A stretch of DNA of 64,000 nt, taken from positions 62,009,369-62,073,368 of the forward strand of contig OX442314.1 in the NCBI GenBank assembly GCA_949358305.1, read 5' to 3'. Both the position numbers and the translations under genes were made by a program. Of this stretch, positions 21,047 through 55,916 are shown piece after piece; the first letter of the stretch is position 1, and each line of letters opens with the position of its first letter. The DNA is from Strigamia acuminata. Lineage: Eukaryota > Arthropoda > Chilopoda > Geophilomorpha > Linotaeniidae. The notes beneath the pieces are model-generated. The model saw nothing but the letters and a program-made list of their open reading frames with translations, searched no databases and was not told the origin of the DNA.

Positions 21047-38174
<17,128 letters not shown>

Positions 38175-38186
<12 letters not shown>

Positions 38187-46879: not shown

Positions 46880-47330
46880 TTTTGGGATTTTGGATCCGTC
46901 ATATGGTGTGATACGTCGCACCTTTCCGAATTAGTGCGGCAATGGCGCGTTTCTGTTTAGCATTGTGTTATGTCTCGAGGTCGAGTGTTGATTGTCTTGC
47001 AAATTCAATCAACACATGTTTTACAGTGTTATCCAGACTGTCGTCTGCTTGGGTTTTTAGTTTATCTATTAGTTTGCCCCGGTTTTTATCCAGTGTGAAT
47101 ACTGGAATTGTATTTAGTTGATGTTTTGTTTGTAAAGAACAAATCAACCACTGTGTGGATGATTTGTTCTACTGTTAGTTGGTTGGCAGTTAGCCTCTAA
47201 CCCATGTATCACTTGATGACTTACTGTTTGGCAATAAAGATGGCGGCCTCCATGGTTAGATGGCTTTGCAGAAAGTAAAGATGCTGTTTTGCTTCCACAC
47301 ATGCACTCACCTACGGTTTATAGATTGACA
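46880..47330 (+). repeat. 5' LTR (451 bp)
   Basis: Begins TTTTGGGATTTTGG (the partner has TGTTGGGATTTTGG) and ends ...TATAGATTGACA. AATAAA at 47233-47238. It also contains 'gaacaaatcaaccactgtgt' and 'atggcggcctccatgg'. Confidence 0.93.
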
Positions 47331-47331
47331 T

Positions 47332-47347
47332 TGGTAGCAGAGGGTGG
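47332..47347 (+). other. Primer binding site for initiator methionine tRNA
   Basis: TGGTAGCAGAGGGTGG directly follows the LTR with one spacer base. The complement of animal initiator-Met tRNA 3' ends is TGGTAGCAGAGGATGG, one mismatch in 16. This is the full 3'-end type of priming, not the internal half-tRNA priming used by Drosophila copia. Confidence 0.85.
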
Positions 47348-48516: not shown

Positions 48517-50688
48517 ATGGCGGATAGATTTGACAGAGCTAGACTGAGGCGAGAGTTTTTAGACCTCAAACGCAACGACAATGAGTCGATGTACTCATTT
48601 CTGGATCGAGTCGACCAGAAAGCAATCGAAGTTAATGCAGAGGGGCTGGGATTGCACGACATTGATGTGGCTTTCCAGTATATGGACTTCCTCGGACCGG
48701 AGTTCGAGGAATGTAAAGAAAGAATTGAGTCATGGCCAGTCGAAGATTTTATTCCCGAAAAGATCCGGGTTGAACTGTTAAGAGAGTGGGACAGGCTGCA
48801 CCCACCACGTGTCCAGGAGCCTATGGACATATCATCATCAGAAATGGACAGTTCAAGTGATGAAAAAGATGTTGACCGTGGTTTGGGTGCGTCCTGCGCA
48901 CAGGAGCCATCTGCACACGTTGCTCTAATGATTAGACAAGAGGAAACATTGAATTGCAACGTGGGAGACAGTCCCAAATTATTCTACGTGTCGATGGACG
49001 AAAGTCAAAGGCAAAATAATTTGCCATTACGCTCATACGTGACGAGCGGAGCGCCCGATCCCGCCTGGTATGTTGATACCGGGGCGACGGATCACTTTAC
49101 TTTCAGCAAAGATGGGCTCATCAATTATAGGCCTTTAACGAACATTAACGTTCATTTAGGGGAAGGGTCCTCTAAAATAGCAGGAGTGGGGGACTTAAGA
49201 TTAGATTCAGGTGAAAAAGTGCCTGGCGGGTTTGTTACATTGAAGAATGTATATTATGCCCTGAATTTTGTGAGGAATTTAATGAGTCTAGGCAGAATTG
49301 ATGAGGCCGGGTATGTAACCCGCATTGCTGAAGGAAAGTTGGTCTCCTTCAAAAACAGGATTACGCAGCCGATTTTACGAGCAACGCGGCAAAGCGACAG
49401 AATGTATAAAACTAATTGTAGAGTGATTTTACCAAATGTGAACGCAAGTGCAATTCCTGCGCAACAGGATGCGCTTGCGGCAGATAACCAGAGCACTGGT
49501 GGAAATGTACAGTTACTAACCCATACTAGTCATAAGACCACAGGTTACCGGATCTGGGACCATAAAAATAGGCGTGTCGTCAGTTCAAAACACGTCAAAA
49601 TTATTGAGGAAGAATATTGGAACGATAAAGTCTATAACGAGGAGGTGTTTAAGAAATCAGAGGGGGTAGGAACGGAATGGAATGGAGATTTCATATACAC
49701 CGCGCAAGACGGTTTTGAGTCGGACGAGGAGAGTGTGGTGGCGACACCACCTCCGTCACCCCCGAGGGCAGTTAAAGTGCCCCCACCAGCGGCTAAACTC
49801 GAGCCGGTGAAAGAAATGGTGCAACAGGCACCCAAAGTGGAACCTGCCCAGCAGGTAGCGCAAGAAATTGCGCAGCGAGCACCTGTTCAACAGGTAGAGA
49901 GAGAAGCCCCTATTGGAGGGGTCTTACCGACAAAACCGGCGAAACCGCCATTACCCACGACCCCCAAACCCACATTGAGGCCGAGAACGGCAGAAGCGCC
50001 TGCAGAGGAGAGCCCGACACAGTCGGAAGATGAAGAAGAGTATGAGCAGGCCGTACGGGTTACTAAGAACATTAGAGGGGGCCCGGGGGATGTTGGGGGA
50101 CAACAGCCGTTGCCCCTGAATATTGATGAGTGGCAAAGATTTGAGTATACGAGGAAGTCAGGTCGTGATAAAGGAAGACCTTGTACATCGTACGTGGCAC
50201 CAGACAAGACTAGATTAAGGAGTAGGATTGAAATCCTAGCTTGGTGCGAAAATAACGGTTTTGAGTACGATGCGAGCTTGTTTGAGTTTACGTCATTAAA
50301 GGACGAGCCTGAAAACCCATTCGCATTGTGTACATGTTCATGTTGCACTCCTTTCTCATTGTGCTGCATGATAAGGCCTGATACTGATAAGGATGTTGCA
50401 CAAGTTGAGAGAAGTAATGAATGGGAAGGGATAATGAAGAAAATCAAAGCGTTGACTGAAGAGGGAGTTCATTGTGGCAAAAGAAATGAATGGAAAAGAT
50501 TAATACGTTTACGAAAGGGAGCGTCCGTTATGCGGTCGGAGGAATGCCAGACCGCAGATTATTGGATTACAAATGGTGATATCAAACATGTTATGGGAGA
50601 GAATAACGTGGCGGACTTGCTGACCAAATGGCTGGCACGTCCACGTCTTGTGACCCTTGGCAATAGTATTTTCGGGGCGCGACGATAA
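48517..50688 (+). CDS. Single-frame Copia polyprotein derivative: gag part, protease, integrase tail, MBD-like domain, RT stub, RNase H end (723 aa)
   Basis: Start MADRFDRARLRREFLDLKRN in context aaaATGG. Residues 1-150 are gag-like without a CCHC knuckle. 184-193 is the protease site WYVDTGATDH. The GAG-pre-integrase segment (LKNVYYALNFVRNLMSLGRI) follows. From about residue 310 the integrase catalytic core is gone and the text jumps to the integrase tail YRIWDHKNRRVVSSKHVKII (about 343-362). 405-530 is a Pro/Glu/Gln-rich linker. 535-592 is an MBD-like domain. About 630-648 (VERSNEWEGIMKKIKAL) is the N-terminal edge of RT; the RT core and most of RNase H are missing, and 688 onward is the RNase H end (DIKHVMGENNVADLLTKWL). 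The deletions are all in frame and no stop interrupts 723 codons. Confidence 0.88.
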   Translation: MADRFDRARLRREFLDLKRNDNESMYSFLDRVDQKAIEVNAEGLGLHDIDVAFQYMDFLGPEFEECKERIESWPVEDFIPEKIRVELLREWDRLHPPRVQEPMDISSSEMDSSSDEKDVDRGLGASCAQEPSAHVALMIRQEETLNCNVGDSPKLFYVSMDESQRQNNLPLRSYVTSGAPDPAWYVDTGATDHFTFSKDGLINYRPLTNINVHLGEGSSKIAGVGDLRLDSGEKVPGGFVTLKNVYYALNFVRNLMSLGRIDEAGYVTRIAEGKLVSFKNRITQPILRATRQSDRMYKTNCRVILPNVNASAIPAQQDALAADNQSTGGNVQLLTHTSHKTTGYRIWDHKNRRVVSSKHVKIIEEEYWNDKVYNEEVFKKSEGVGTEWNGDFIYTAQDGFESDEESVVATPPPSPPRAVKVPPPAAKLEPVKEMVQQAPKVEPAQQVAQEIAQRAPVQQVEREAPIGGVLPTKPAKPPLPTTPKPTLRPRTAEAPAEESPTQSEDEEEYEQAVRVTKNIRGGPGDVGGQQPLPLNIDEWQRFEYTRKSGRDKGRPCTSYVAPDKTRLRSRIEILAWCENNGFEYDASLFEFTSLKDEPENPFALCTCSCCTPFSLCCMIRPDTDKDVAQVERSNEWEGIMKKIKALTEEGVHCGKRNEWKRLIRLRKGASVMRSEECQTADYWITNGDIKHVMGENNVADLLTKWLARPRLVTLGNSIFGARR
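50119..50292 (+). other. Methyl-CpG-binding (MBD)-like domain encoded in the Copia frame
   Basis: Residues 535-592 of the polyprotein. Compared from memory with human MeCP2, the block EWQRFEYTRKSGRDKGR aligns without gaps to the W.R....RKSGR..GK strand-loop. The next 16 residues reach LRSR, where MeCP2 has FRSK, and the end is EILAWCENNGFEYDASLFEF against the MBD helix and the D..DFDFT finish. Both arginine fingers are present (R546 and R568, equal to MeCP2 R111 and R133). The Asp and Tyr that recognise the methyl groups (D121, Y123) are C556 and S558. Binding to DNA is therefore likely, but methyl-specificity is open. Confidence 0.85.
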
Positions 50689-50768: not shown

Positions 50769-51219
50769 TGTTGGGATTTTGGATCCGTCATATGGTGTGA
50801 TACGTCGCACCTTTCCGAATTAGTGCGGCAATGGCGCGTTTCTGTTTAGCATTGTGTTATGTCTCGAGGTCGAGTGTTGATTGTCTTGCAAATTCAATCA
50901 ACACATGTTTTACAGTGTTATCCAGACTGTCGTCTGCTTGGGTTTTTAGTTTATCTATTAGTTTGCCCCGGTTTTTATCCAGTGTGAATACTGGAATTGT
51001 ATTTAGTTGATGTTTTGTTTGTAAAGAACAAATCAACCACTGTGTGGATGATTTGTTCTACTGTTAGTTGGTTGGCAGTTAGCCTCTAACCCATGTATCA
51101 CTTGATGACTTACTGTTTGGCAATAAAGATGGCGGCCTCCATGGTTAGATGGCTTTGCAGAAAGTAAAGATGCTGTTTTGCTTCCACACATGCACTCACC
51201 TACGGTTTATAGATTGACA
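50769..51219 (+). repeat. 3' LTR (451 bp)
   Basis: TGTTGGGATTTTGG...TAGATTGACA; same length and, by eye, the same sequence as the 5' LTR except the second base. AATAAA at 51122-51127. Confidence 0.94.
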
Positions 51220-52880: not shown

Positions 52881-54491
52881 TTAATCTTGACTTTTTTCGA
52901 CCTCAGTGGAGAGCTTTTGCCTATCCTTCGAAGAGGAGCTTTTGCCACGTTTCTTGGCGGGAAGAGGTTGTTCCGGTTGCCGATCTATGAAGAATGCAGT
53001 GGTCGCGACAACTTCCGTGGTGATGGGAGTCTCGGGTGTTTTATCCCCTTCTTCAGGCTGATCAGTCGATCCGTCTTCTTCATTGATCATCTTTTTGAGA
53101 TCTTCGTAGATGTCAATCACCGGGGGCAAAACCAAAATCCAGCCTTCACATATTTGATTCTTCATCTCATCTGCGATTTTTCCCACAAGCAGATTCCAAA
53201 GGTGCTCCAAAATGTTGAAGCCTTCAACGCGACGTGGATTCAAGATCATTTGCATGATCCTGGTCACATATCCTACTGTTATTGGATCGGGAAGACCCGT
53301 AATCAATTGGCGCGAAATTATTATTGCAAGTCGAGCTACGATGGGGTAGTAGTATTCGACCTCCCAAACGAATAATTGTCCTATCTTGGTGTTCGGGGGA
53401 ACTTGGTAGGGTTCGATTAAGAATTCGTTTGAAATCCCTTGTTCCGCGATATTTGGCATGGGGACCAATACGGCTTCTTCCGTTTGGGTCGCATTATCTA
53501 CGCAGACAACACTTGGCATTTTTTCCAAACCCATTTGAAGGCCAAGGGGCGTTCTTCGCGAATTCATAAATTCGGGATCCTGGTATACAGCTTTGCCATC
53601 GTTAGATAATAAAGCTTTACAAAGGTGGCAGGTTGCCCATTTTCGGGGTTCTGGATCGAACAACCCTTTAATCACGAACGAAACAAACTTTGGGTTCCAG
53701 GGTTGGATTTTTAATCGTCGTTTCGATCCGAGACAATTACCGCACGATGCCAAATGGCATCCGGTCCCGGAGCCGGACATCCAGCCGACCCCGAAACAAA
53801 AAGGGCACGGTATTTCGCCCTTCGCGAGCTCCAAATTGTCGTGTGGAATTCCCAATTCCAGATCGCGATCGCAGGCGGCTTTTCGACGTAGTGCCTTTTC
53901 TTGCTTATTAGCTGCTCTTTGTTGAGCAGTCATCGGCTGCAGTTTGGGGGCTCTGGTGGACACAAACGTACGTTTCCCTCTAGCCGTATTATATCTAGGA
54001 GTATACACTACTTCGCGCGAAGTCGTGGGTGGCGGCGAGTCGTAATGAACGTATTCTCGCTGTTTACGTTTGTTGTCTTGATGGCGATTTCCCTCGGGAT
54101 TTCGATTCGCCTCTAATTGGACAATCTCGTCCAGACTTCTCTCATGAGAGGTTGACGAATCGTTCATTCGACTCGTACTTGGTTTATGGATCGGCTGTAA
54201 AGGATGGCTTTTGGAGAAACTGTCCTTTTTTGGTATAATGAAGGTTTCTTGGGTAACCTCCATCGCCGTTTTGGGTACAGCCGTTTTGGGGCGAATTTCC
54301 TTTGGGAGAGCATCTGGGTTGTTTCGGGCCCAAGTTAATATGTCCCATCCTTTTTGGTCGAGCACAATAGGAGTGTTTGGCGCTCCCGGGACCGTTACGA
54401 TGGTCGGGTTGACTGTTGGCGTATTGTCCTCCTCTGAAGAGCTCGACTGAATCACGATTCGCCGCTTTTTAATCGGTATCTTCTTGACCAT
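52881..54491 (-). CDS. Intact 536-aa ORF downstream of Gypsy pol, Cys-rich, function unknown
   Basis: Starts MVKKIPIKKRRIVIQSSSSE. Residues 1-210 are basic, Ser/Pro-rich and probably disordered, with an N-terminal nuclear-localisation-like KKRR. A Cys/His-rich region at 229-291 has CPFC (229-232), C245-H246, C250, C253 and CHLC (288-291), suggesting one or two zinc-binding modules. 370-470 is hydrophobic and helical (VARLAIIISRQLITGLPDPI). The tail is acidic then Lys/Ser-rich. No signal peptide, furin site or transmembrane anchor is evident, so this is not an ordinary Gypsy envelope. It follows, on the same strand, an integrase fragment (55085-55916), i.e. the position of a third ORF. A GTAAGT donor near 54651 and an acceptor 'tatatttgtag' at 54496 lie just upstream, so a spliced subgenomic RNA is possible. 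Confidence 0.7.
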   Translation of the reverse strand: MVKKIPIKKRRIVIQSSSSEEDNTPTVNPTIVTVPGAPNTPIVLDQKGWDILTWARNNPDALPKEIRPKTAVPKTAMEVTQETFIIPKKDSFSKSHPLQPIHKPSTSRMNDSSTSHERSLDEIVQLEANRNPEGNRHQDNKRKQREYVHYDSPPPTTSREVVYTPRYNTARGKRTFVSTRAPKLQPMTAQQRAANKQEKALRRKAACDRDLELGIPHDNLELAKGEIPCPFCFGVGWMSGSGTGCHLASCGNCLGSKRRLKIQPWNPKFVSFVIKGLFDPEPRKWATCHLCKALLSNDGKAVYQDPEFMNSRRTPLGLQMGLEKMPSVVCVDNATQTEEAVLVPMPNIAEQGISNEFLIEPYQVPPNTKIGQLFVWEVEYYYPIVARLAIIISRQLITGLPDPITVGYVTRIMQMILNPRRVEGFNILEHLWNLLVGKIADEMKNQICEGWILVLPPVIDIYEDLKKMINEEDGSTDQPEEGDKTPETPITTEVVATTAFFIDRQPEQPLPAKKRGKSSSSKDRQKLSTEVEKSQD

Positions 54492-55084
54492 AATTCTACA
54501 AATATAGAAAAACGTTTTAGTTTTATTTGCAATATTTTTATATGCGCGCGCCCTCTATTGAGAAACGCGTAACTGAATTTACGAATTTTATAATTATAAT
54601 TCGTTACAATTTTATATTTTCGTGTATTGATAATTTTATCGAACTTACGAGAATGTCCTGCTTCCTTTAGAAGCGTATCTTGTGGAATTATGAGTGTAGT
54701 CGCCTCGACGACAACTTGGAGTTTAGAGCACGTGGCTTTCAAATCCTCCGCCGCTAATAAACGAATTCCGCTGGTTCGTATTTCTTCGAATATTCAAAGA
54801 AATTTCATGATATATATATAACTTTATATGCATAATCATAATACCTGTATTCGTTGATTGATAGTTAACAATGCCAACGCGTTTGACCGTGATTTTTGTT
54901 GAACTTGACGAAGTTCTTCTTCTCTCACGTGTGTGTTAGAAGACTGAGTATAGAACGAATCTTTTACTCTCCACCCGGGGTCATAATTTATCAGGTGACT
55001 TCGCGAATTTCGATTTGAATATTCAATATCTGAATTAAATCAACATCTTTTTTAGAATATTCTTTTTAATATTTAGAATCTTTT
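54492..55084 (-). other. Spacer between Gypsy integrase and ORF3 with a candidate intron
   Basis: A minus-strand frame 54742-54452 starts MKATCSKLQVVVEATTLIIP and crosses a consensus donor (catTCTC/gtaagt). Splicing to the acceptor at 54496 would place the ORF3 ATG five bases after the junction, but in a different frame from this upstream peptide. No other coding sequence was seen. Confidence 0.4.
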
Positions 55085-55916
55085 TTAACGACGTTCTTGA
55101 ATCATCTGTACAAAATCCGTTGTATATTTCGGATTTGGCTTCGAAGTTCTTTTCGGTCTCGAGATTATTTCCGGAAGGTCAGCTGTTCGCTTCCGTTTAT
55201 TCGAGTTATTACTTCGTGAATCTGTAATGTCGTTTCCATTTTCATTTGAGGTAGGAATTATTATTTCTTCTTGTTCAAGATTTTCTTGAGGAAGTTCTTC
55301 CATATCTTGTTCAAGATTTTCACGCGAGATTTCTTCTGTATCTTGATTATCTAATTCTTGTGAATTAGATTCGTTAAATTCGGAATTTGATGACATCCAA
55401 TCAGGGTTTGGGTGATTTTCCAGTTTTCCTTTTTTCTGACCCAGAGTCCATGTCTCAATCGGGTATGAAGGGATATACGGGGTGAGATCATCCGTATTTA
55501 TTGATGGTTCAATTGAATCATCTAATAATTTTCGTAAGGCGTATGCACCTCCTGTTAATACGGCTGTGATTTCCCACGGTCCGTCTCGTTTTTCAGCAAA
55601 TCCTTTAATAATGCCTTTGTCTTGATTGGAGAGAATATGTGTATTCTTCCAGACTAAATCACCTACTTCATATTTGCAAATATGAAATTTATTACGGTGA
55701 ATTCTGTCGTGTTTCTCGTAATTTAGTTGGATCCTACGGTGCATTTCTTGGTGTGCTCTCCGTAAAATCCCGAGTAAATTAAACATGAATTCCTCAGGGT
55801 TATTTTTATCGAATTTATTCGCGTGTTGAATAATTCGCGGGTCGAAAGGTAGTGTTACTATTCTTCCCTTAACCTTATGGCGCGCATGCGGATTTCTCGG
55901 AGTGCGAAAGGGACCC
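55085..55916 (-). pseudogene. Ty3/Gypsy integrase C-terminal part
   Basis: The frame is open from about 55916 (GPFRTPRNPHARHKVKGRIV), through LPFDPRIIQHANKFDKNNPE and the first ATG (MFNLLGILRRAHQEMHRRIQ, 55786), to the stop at 55085. The block YEVGDLVWKNTHILSNQDKG, then GPWEITAVLTGGAYALRKLL and NTDDLTPYIP, is the GPY/F module and end of Gypsy integrases. A Glu/Asn-rich and basic tail follows. It is truncated at the 5' side by a TAG, so protease, RT and the integrase core are missing. Confidence 0.85.

What the first reader, a model, noticed from the sequence alone, without database searches (positions are those of the whole stretch)
50119..50292. Copia-derived frame encodes an MBD-like domain behind the integrase tail
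Seen: a segment of about 58 residues matches the MBD fold pattern through the whole core, with both DNA-contacting arginines kept (R546, R568) and the same spacing from RKSGR to L/F-RS-R/K as MeCP2. It sits between the integrase tail and the RT stub, in a young element with near-identical LTRs. Known: chromoviruses (Ty3/Gypsy) carry a chromodomain at the integrase C-terminus that steers integration to heterochromatin. Inference: a Copia lineage may have captured a methyl-DNA reader for the same purpose, or to find or mask methylated copies. The Asp and Tyr that read the methyl groups are replaced (C556, S558), so it may read DNA without methyl preference. I do not know of a described Copia lineage with this domain.
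Basis: partly seen in the sequence, partly recalled or inferred. Interest (0 to 1): 0.88.

Follow-up and report, generated by a model that had tools for sequence, protein, structure and literature searches.

The report
Jumping gene with DNA-methylation-reader domain
A group of Copia jumping genes, seen here in one probable insect genome and in spiders, carries a domain related to the proteins that read DNA methylation, placed between its insertion enzyme and its copying enzyme, which suggests that these elements grip or sense CpG-containing host DNA, though that use is not yet shown.

Summary
Window residues 537-594 (50125-50298) are a methyl-CpG-binding domain (MBD): Pfam 30 bits, cut-off 21; predicted core pLDDT above 90; all 23 PDB matches at E<=0.001 are MBDs. 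The window copy is internally deleted. Fuller relatives have gag-protease-integrase-SH3-linker-MBD-RT, and 263 places in this genome match the segment (not checked singly). Divergent pairs show purifying selection. Copia proteins from spiders and unnamed sources carry it too; 27 of 39 aligned rows keep both methyl-reading residues, Asp and Tyr. On an RT tree of 61 chosen rows all MBD rows fall in one clade, 100/99, so one capture is likeliest. Window-type families lost Asp and Tyr but keep both DNA-gripping arginines. MBD copies concentrate at non-telomeric contig ends, unlike MBD-less Copia, but gypsy elements without a detected chromodomain are distributed the same way, so MBD-directed targeting is not demonstrated. 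Best reading: a CpG-DNA tether on the integration machinery, ancestrally methyl-reading and relaxed here. Seven paper searches showed no description, though public protein records already hold the architecture.

The parts
46882..47330 (+). 5' LTR (identical part; the boundary is probably 46880, where it reads TT instead of TG)
   Evidence: 449-base exact repeat, (300-base core); boundary letters
47332..47343 (+). primer-binding site tggtagcagagg, matching the 3' end of initiator tRNA-Met (tRNA match recalled, not run)
   Evidence: letters after the LTR; the same site is seen beside the LTRs of the 12 other copies printed there (cut short in L038)
48517..50688 (+). open frame of the internally deleted Copia element (723 aa plus stop)
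48535..48801 (+). C-terminal part of gag
   Evidence: tblastn match 45%; Retrotran_gag_2 E 0.023, below cut-off
49033..49413 (+). protease region (Pol_BBD)
   Evidence: Pfam PF22936 7e-15; tblastn 67%
49528..49620 (+). last part of the integrase SH3-like domain; no integrase core before it
   Evidence: Pfam PF25597 3.9e-5, 23.9 bits (cut-off 27), positions 42-72 of 73; no rve match
49621..50124 (+). Pro/Glu-rich linker
   Evidence: translation; in relatives SH3+linker dN/dS 0.25-0.35 in the three informative divergent pairs
50125..50298 (+). methyl-CpG-binding-like domain (MBD), residues 537-594; R546 and R568 kept, Asp and Tyr replaced by C556 and S558
50578..50673 (+).
   Evidence: tblastn 72% to residues 464-495 of the RT-RNase H query
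50771..51219 (+). 3' LTR (its TG starts at 50769)

Best explanation
The segment is a true MBD, probably captured once by the ancestor of a deep Copia clade and kept since between the integrase SH3 domain and reverse transcriptase. Most likely it stays on the C-terminal tail of integrase (or at the integrase-RT junction) and holds the pre-integration complex on CpG-containing host DNA through its two arginine fingers, biasing where copies insert. In the ancestral state (Asp and Tyr present, as in spider elements) it probably preferred methylated CpG. In the window's families the methyl-sensing Asp and Tyr are gone, so it probably binds CpG or DNA with little methyl preference. Shown: domain identity, predicted fold, position, purifying selection in divergent pairs, one RT clade in the sample, loss of methyl-reading residues within the host clade. 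Inferred: presence on mature integrase, DNA binding, effect on integration.
For: MBD by profile and predicted fold. Order gag-PR-IN-SH3-MBD-RVT_2 in 8 of 10 frames scanned; the other 2 lack RVT_2 but keep IN and MBD. MBD end lies 31-89 residues before RT, median 46, in 50 rows. MBD dN/dS 0.07, 0.10, 0.07 and 0.17 in the four pairs with MBD dS 0.43-0.71; SH3+linker 0.32, 0.35, 0.25 in the first three. The 13 fetched close copies (L002-L014) differ from the window MBD by 19 synonymous and 2 non-synonymous codons, not independent. R111 and R133 equivalents in 11 of 11 host rows; in 39 outside rows R111 35, D121 28, Y123 31, R133 28, D and Y together 27. One RT clade 100/99 in 61 rows. Host has matches to the DNA methyltransferase family at five places. 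MBD copies are placed unlike MBD-less Copia. A nonautonomous family kept gag-PR-IN-MBD and lost RT.
Against: Gypsy elements show the same placement (same-label neighbours 0.551 against 0.535 shuffled, sd 0.032, p 0.33), and 0 of 150 have a chromodomain match within 6 kb, so this accumulation needs no reader domain that I could detect. Elements and 9 of 12 flanks show no CpG depletion (element o/e 1.03-1.12), so methylated CpG is probably scarce where these copies sit. In two closer pairs (L035/L036, L037/L038) MBD dN/dS is 0.27 and 0.23, nearer to the linker (0.33, 0.32) than to RT (0.03, 0.02). The window's family keeps the MBD without an integrase core. A degenerate subclade (P0012, P0013, P0014, P0016, P0019, P0023) has lost most contact residues yet keeps the segment, which fits a structural role as well.
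Confidence: 0.55

Rival explanations
1. The MBD is a non-specific DNA or cDNA grip: it stabilises the intasome or helps RT hold its template, without choosing target sites.
For: Arginine fingers kept in 11 of 11 host rows while the methyl-reading pair is lost in most of them; position shortly before RT; gypsy placement is the same without it.
Against: The RT-less family keeps it together with integrase; 27 of 39 outside rows keep both Asp and Tyr, unnecessary for a plain grip.
Confidence: 0.2
2. The MBD acts against host silencing: it competes with host MBD proteins for methylated element copies, or helps the element find or mask them.
For: Host has DNA methyltransferase family matches at five places (the family also covers DNMT2, not told apart); methyl-reading residues kept in many relatives.
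Against: Elements show no CpG depletion, so they are probably little methylated in the germ line; window-type families lost the methyl-reading pair.
Confidence: 0.12
3. The MBD is only a structural spacer between integrase and RT, its DNA contacts being leftovers.
For: In the P0012-P0023 subclade rows the segment survives with most contact residues changed; in two close pairs it is hardly more constrained than the linker.
Against: Both arginines are kept in 11 of 11 host rows, and R111 in 35 and R133 in 28 of 39 outside rows; the seven sampled control Copia families have no such domain there.
Confidence: 0.1
4. Chance read-through or annotation artefact.
For: The window copy is internally deleted.
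Against: 263 matching places, fuller relatives, selection, other hosts, fold.
Confidence: 0.01

Closest known systems
Metazoan MBD proteins (MBD1, MBD2, MBD4, MeCP2; Pfam PF01429)
   Different: Sits inside a retrotransposon polyprotein; the window family lacks the methyl-reading Asp and Tyr; a W-C pair is invariant in the 11 aligned element rows
Chromoviruses (Ty3/Gypsy with integrase C-terminal chromodomain; PMC3605345, start of abstract seen in the listings)
   Same: A chromatin- or DNA-reader domain behind integrase in an LTR retrotransposon
   Different: Copia, not Gypsy; MBD, not chromodomain; targeting effect not shown
Ty1/Copia elements in general
   Same: gag, protease, integrase, SH3, RVT_2 in Copia order
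   Different: Seven sampled MBD-less Copia families of the same genome have only a linker there
Retrotransposons with captured cytosine methyltransferases (PMC5890265; only passages found by term)
   Same: A DNA-methylation gene captured by retrotransposons
   Different: A writer in Gypsy and DIRS lineages (as stated in a passage of PMC6338049), not a reader in Copia

Membership tests
MBD family (PF01429) | Profile score over the curated cut-off | tested here: met
   Window 30.0 to 32.8 bits, depending on the piece, against 21. Of 10 relatives' whole frames, 5 are over it and 5 just under (19.2-20.8)
MBD family (PF01429) | MBD fold | tested here: met
MBD family (PF01429) | Two arginine fingers (MeCP2 R111, R133) | tested here: met
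   R546, R568 (numbering); 11 of 11 host rows
Methyl-specific MBD | Asp and Tyr that sense the methyl groups (MeCP2 D121, Y123; roles recalled) | tested here: not met
   C556, S558 in the window; both kept in 27 of 39 outside rows and in host rows L047 and L039x7159_9315p
Methyl-specific MBD | Binding preference for 5mCpG | not testable with these tools
   Needs a binding assay
Ty1/Copia LTR retrotransposon | LTRs, and integrase before RVT_2-type RT | tested here: met
   8 of 10 frames scanned; LTR pairs in 14 of 19 fetched loci. The window copy itself lacks integrase core and RT
Chromovirus | Ty3/Gypsy RT with integrase chromodomain | tested here: not met
   RVT_2 RT and MBD; no Chromo match at E<=1 in the 10 scanned frames

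The most novel reading that the evidence does not exclude
Probability: 0.3. Interest if true: 0.92.

Novelty: new variant of a known kind. Interest (0 to 1): 0.78.

Why it matters
Reader domains on retrotransposon integrases were, as far as I recall, chiefly chromodomains on Ty3/Gypsy. An MBD held by a Copia clade found in spiders and in this probable insect (horizontal transfer not excluded), with the methyl-reading residues intact in many members and lost in others, would be a natural series for testing whether mobile elements use host DNA methylation as an address. Young MBD-bearing, MBD-less and gypsy elements live in the same genome, so insertion patterns can be compared directly.

Tried and rejected
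Chance read-through: rejected. Clustering as proof of targeting: rejected after the gypsy control. A tidy stepwise loss of Tyr and then Asp: not borne out, because L040, which lacks both, branches before L044/L048, which keep Asp (85/88), so Asp was lost more than once or the tree is unresolved there. An extra gene in the long 5' leader: the open frames fall into groups that do not match across all families, so I treat them as leader sequence; L031 and L033/L034 do share one at 61-62%. Protein searches with the short piece (no candidate) and with L044 residues 880-1150 (1875 candidates, none at E<=0.001) failed; L033 residues 1000-1400 worked. Viral-contig scan: 29 pattern matches, no relative. 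Single-sequence fold: pLDDT 55, inconclusive, although Foldseek still ranked MBDs 1-31, with TM-scores near 0.3 and no match at E<=0.001. Gene-density map (PF00069): not completed. Host species not identified: TTAGG telomere repeats at two contig ends suggest an insect; Hymenoptera is a guess from general knowledge.

Full report
WHAT IS THERE. The frame 48517-50688 lies between two LTRs (449 identical bases) and holds a gag remnant, protease region, the end of the integrase SH3 domain, a linker, an MBD and the RNase H C-terminus. No integrase core or RVT_2 match is found in it, so this copy is an internally deleted Copia element. It is one of a family: one search lists 13 further copies at 92-99% identity over most or all of the 127-residue segment (L002-L014) and two partial ones (L016, L017). 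Two of the 13, refetched as L032 and L031, have integrase and RT.

IT IS PART OF FULLER ELEMENTS. Of 10 frames scanned, 8 have gag or part of it, protease, integrase, SH3, MBD and RVT_2 in that order; the other 2 (L041, L046) have no RVT_2. L041, L046 and L049 carry only the last 29 residues of RNase H after the MBD: a nonautonomous family that lost RT but kept gag, protease, integrase and MBD. LTR pairs were found in 14 of 19 fetched loci, 9 of them 100% identical over the aligned part, so these elements moved recently. Five-base target-site duplications are visible, for example in L034, L039, L040, L041 and L044, but not in the window copy. Two searches, scoring only 150 of 1255 and 150 of 1092 candidates, give 263 distinct places that match the segment or part of it: a lower bound, not checked one by one, which may include a few host genes.

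SELECTION. Of 19 pairs computed, four have MBD dS between 0.43 and 0.71: L034/L035 (dN/dS 0.07), L033/L038 (0.10), L044/L048 (0.07) and L040/L041 (0.17). SH3+linker gives 0.32, 0.35 and 0.25 in the first three and has only three changes in the fourth; RT gives 0.08 and 0.07 in the first two, is saturated in the third and absent from L041. At lower dS the MBD values scatter from 0 to 0.54 on zero to six non-synonymous changes; in L035/L036 and L037/L038 the MBD (0.27, 0.23) is nearer to the linker (0.33, 0.32) than to RT (0.03, 0.02). The most divergent pairs are saturated. Unequal dS along one pair (L034/L035: MBD 0.57, RT 0.15) hints at recombination between elements. The 13 close copies L002-L014 differ from the window MBD by 19 synonymous and 2 non-synonymous codons, not independent events.

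OTHER HOSTS AND ORIGIN. A search with MBD plus RT found 4098 proteins at E<=0.001, of which the best 120 are listed and were examined; 12 of these carry a precomputed Pfam MBD, four of them named as Araneus ventricosus. My profile finds the segment in 33 of 120 at domain E below 0.001, for a set of 120 proteins, including P0047 of the spider Stegodyphus mimosarum; the Trichonephila clavipes rows P0020, P0051 and P0086 are partial or degenerate. An RT tree holds 61 rows: 48 of the 120 proteins, chosen by me (72 dropped, mainly plants and algae), 11 MBD-bearing Copia rows from this genome and 2 MBD-less control families. The 50 rows with an MBD or a degenerate one fall in one clade, 100/99, stem 1.35; the one further row inside it, P0046, is nearly identical in RT to P0035 and lacks the segment. 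Caveats: the query contained the MBD, which favours MBD-bearing hits; labels were set by hand; the bootstrap had not fully settled; the chosen outgroup was not one side of a branch. One capture followed by losses is the simplest reading; horizontal transfer between hosts is not excluded.

METHYL-READING RESIDUES. In 39 outside rows the MeCP2 R111, D121, Y123 and R133 equivalents are kept in 35, 28, 31 and 28, D and Y together in 27 and all four in 25; in 11 host rows in 11, 5, 2 and 11. L047, which branches first within the main host clade (clade 100/99; the split that sets it apart 83/78), keeps both D and Y; L040 comes next and lacks both; L044 and L048 keep D only; L031 (window type) and its sisters lack both. 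So Asp was lost more than once, or the order is unresolved (85/88). Six rows (P0012, P0013, P0014, P0016, P0019, P0023) keep the segment with most contacts changed.

METHYLATION IN THE HOST. PF00145 matches lie at five places (11 matches), so methyltransferase-family genes are present; the family also covers DNMT2, and I did not tell the types apart. CpG o/e is 1.29 in the window, 1.03-1.12 in the elements, and over 1 in 9 of 12 flanks (0.62 beside L044; 0.85 and 0.96 in two others). That argues against heavy germ-line methylation of these copies.

WHERE THE COPIES SIT. MBD copies and the best-scoring RVT_2 copies (150 scored of 2633 candidates) number 136 and 143 after thinning. Seven of seven sampled families of the latter lack the domain, and none of the 150 has an MBD place within 3 kb. 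On ten large contigs (259 points) the two classes are segregated: same-label nearest neighbours 0.753 against 0.539 shuffled within contigs, sd 0.037, 0 of 5000 shuffles as high. On C1, whose start is a TTAGG telomere, 19 of 36 MBD places and 4 of 60 control places lie in the last tenth; on C8, whose end is telomeric, 10 of 15 and 0 of 6 lie in the first tenth (with the 263-place union 31 of 59 and 9 of 22). These look like pericentromeric ends, an inference. But the gypsy control (150 scored of 3461 candidates) has 12 of 24 there on C1 and 3 of 12 on C8, is mixed with MBD places (0.551 against 0.535, sd 0.032, p 0.33) and segregates from MBD-less Copia (0.681 against 0.551). None of 150 gypsy places has a Pfam chromodomain match within 6 kb or an MBD place within 3 kb. 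Placement therefore does not show that the MBD steers integration.

MECHANISM. The MBD follows the integrase SH3 domain and its tail and precedes RT by a median of 46 residues. In yeast Ty1 this stretch is the integrase C-terminal tail, which contacts the targeting partner (recalled, not looked up). I therefore think it most likely that the MBD tethers the integration complex to CpG-containing DNA; a plain DNA grip, a counter-silencing role and a spacer are rivals. Where the protein is cut is unknown.

NOVELTY. Seven answered paper searches combining MBD or methyl-CpG with Copia, retrotransposon or reverse-transcriptase terms showed no description. I judged from titles and abstract starts; two searches listed 20 of 65 and 12 of 37 papers, and the library lacks most subscription journals and bioRxiv. 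One search was on chromodomain targeting only. Two papers were opened by term search alone: PMC6338049 on accessory domains and PMC5890265 on captured methyltransferases, with no occurrence of MBD in either main text. The architecture does exist in public protein records with Pfam labels, so the sequences are not new, but I found no account of the clade, its apparent single origin or the residue series.

Noticed in passing
L041, L046, L049: A nonautonomous family keeps gag, protease, integrase and MBD and has lost nearly all of RT and RNase H; at least six further places have the same 1065 or 1125 aa frame length (not checked for RT).
   Followed up: partly
P0012, P0013, P0014, P0016, P0019, P0023: A Copia subclade from unnamed sources carries a strongly remodelled MBD-like segment at the same place, with most contact residues changed.
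   Followed up: partly
window 26173-38183: Exons of a brahma-like SNF2 chromatin remodeller (HSA, Helicase_C, SnAC, bromodomain) lie about 9 kb from the element.
   Followed up: no
window 46880 and 51220: The window copy has TT instead of TG at its 5' LTR start and no matching target-site duplication; it may be a product of recombination.
   Followed up: no
window 52881-54554 (-) and 55085-55915 (-): Open frames of 557 and 276 aa without Pfam match at E 0.01; the second looks to me like a gypsy integrase end.
   Followed up: no
G000:C13:319953 and C13:323412: The best Pfam MBD match of the genome (50 bits, 406 aa frame) lies 3.5 kb from a chromodomain match.
   Followed up: no
whole genome: Many partial chromodomain matches (positions 1-35 or 1-36) in repeated frames of about 320-330 aa, many of them on C1 and C13: an unidentified multicopy family.
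   Followed up: no
L033-L044 5' leaders: About 1 kb between the 5' LTR and the main frame with long open frames that are not one protein conserved in all families.
   Followed up: partly
L034 against L035: dS differs strongly along the frame (MBD 0.57, RT 0.15), which hints at recombination between element families.
   Followed up: no
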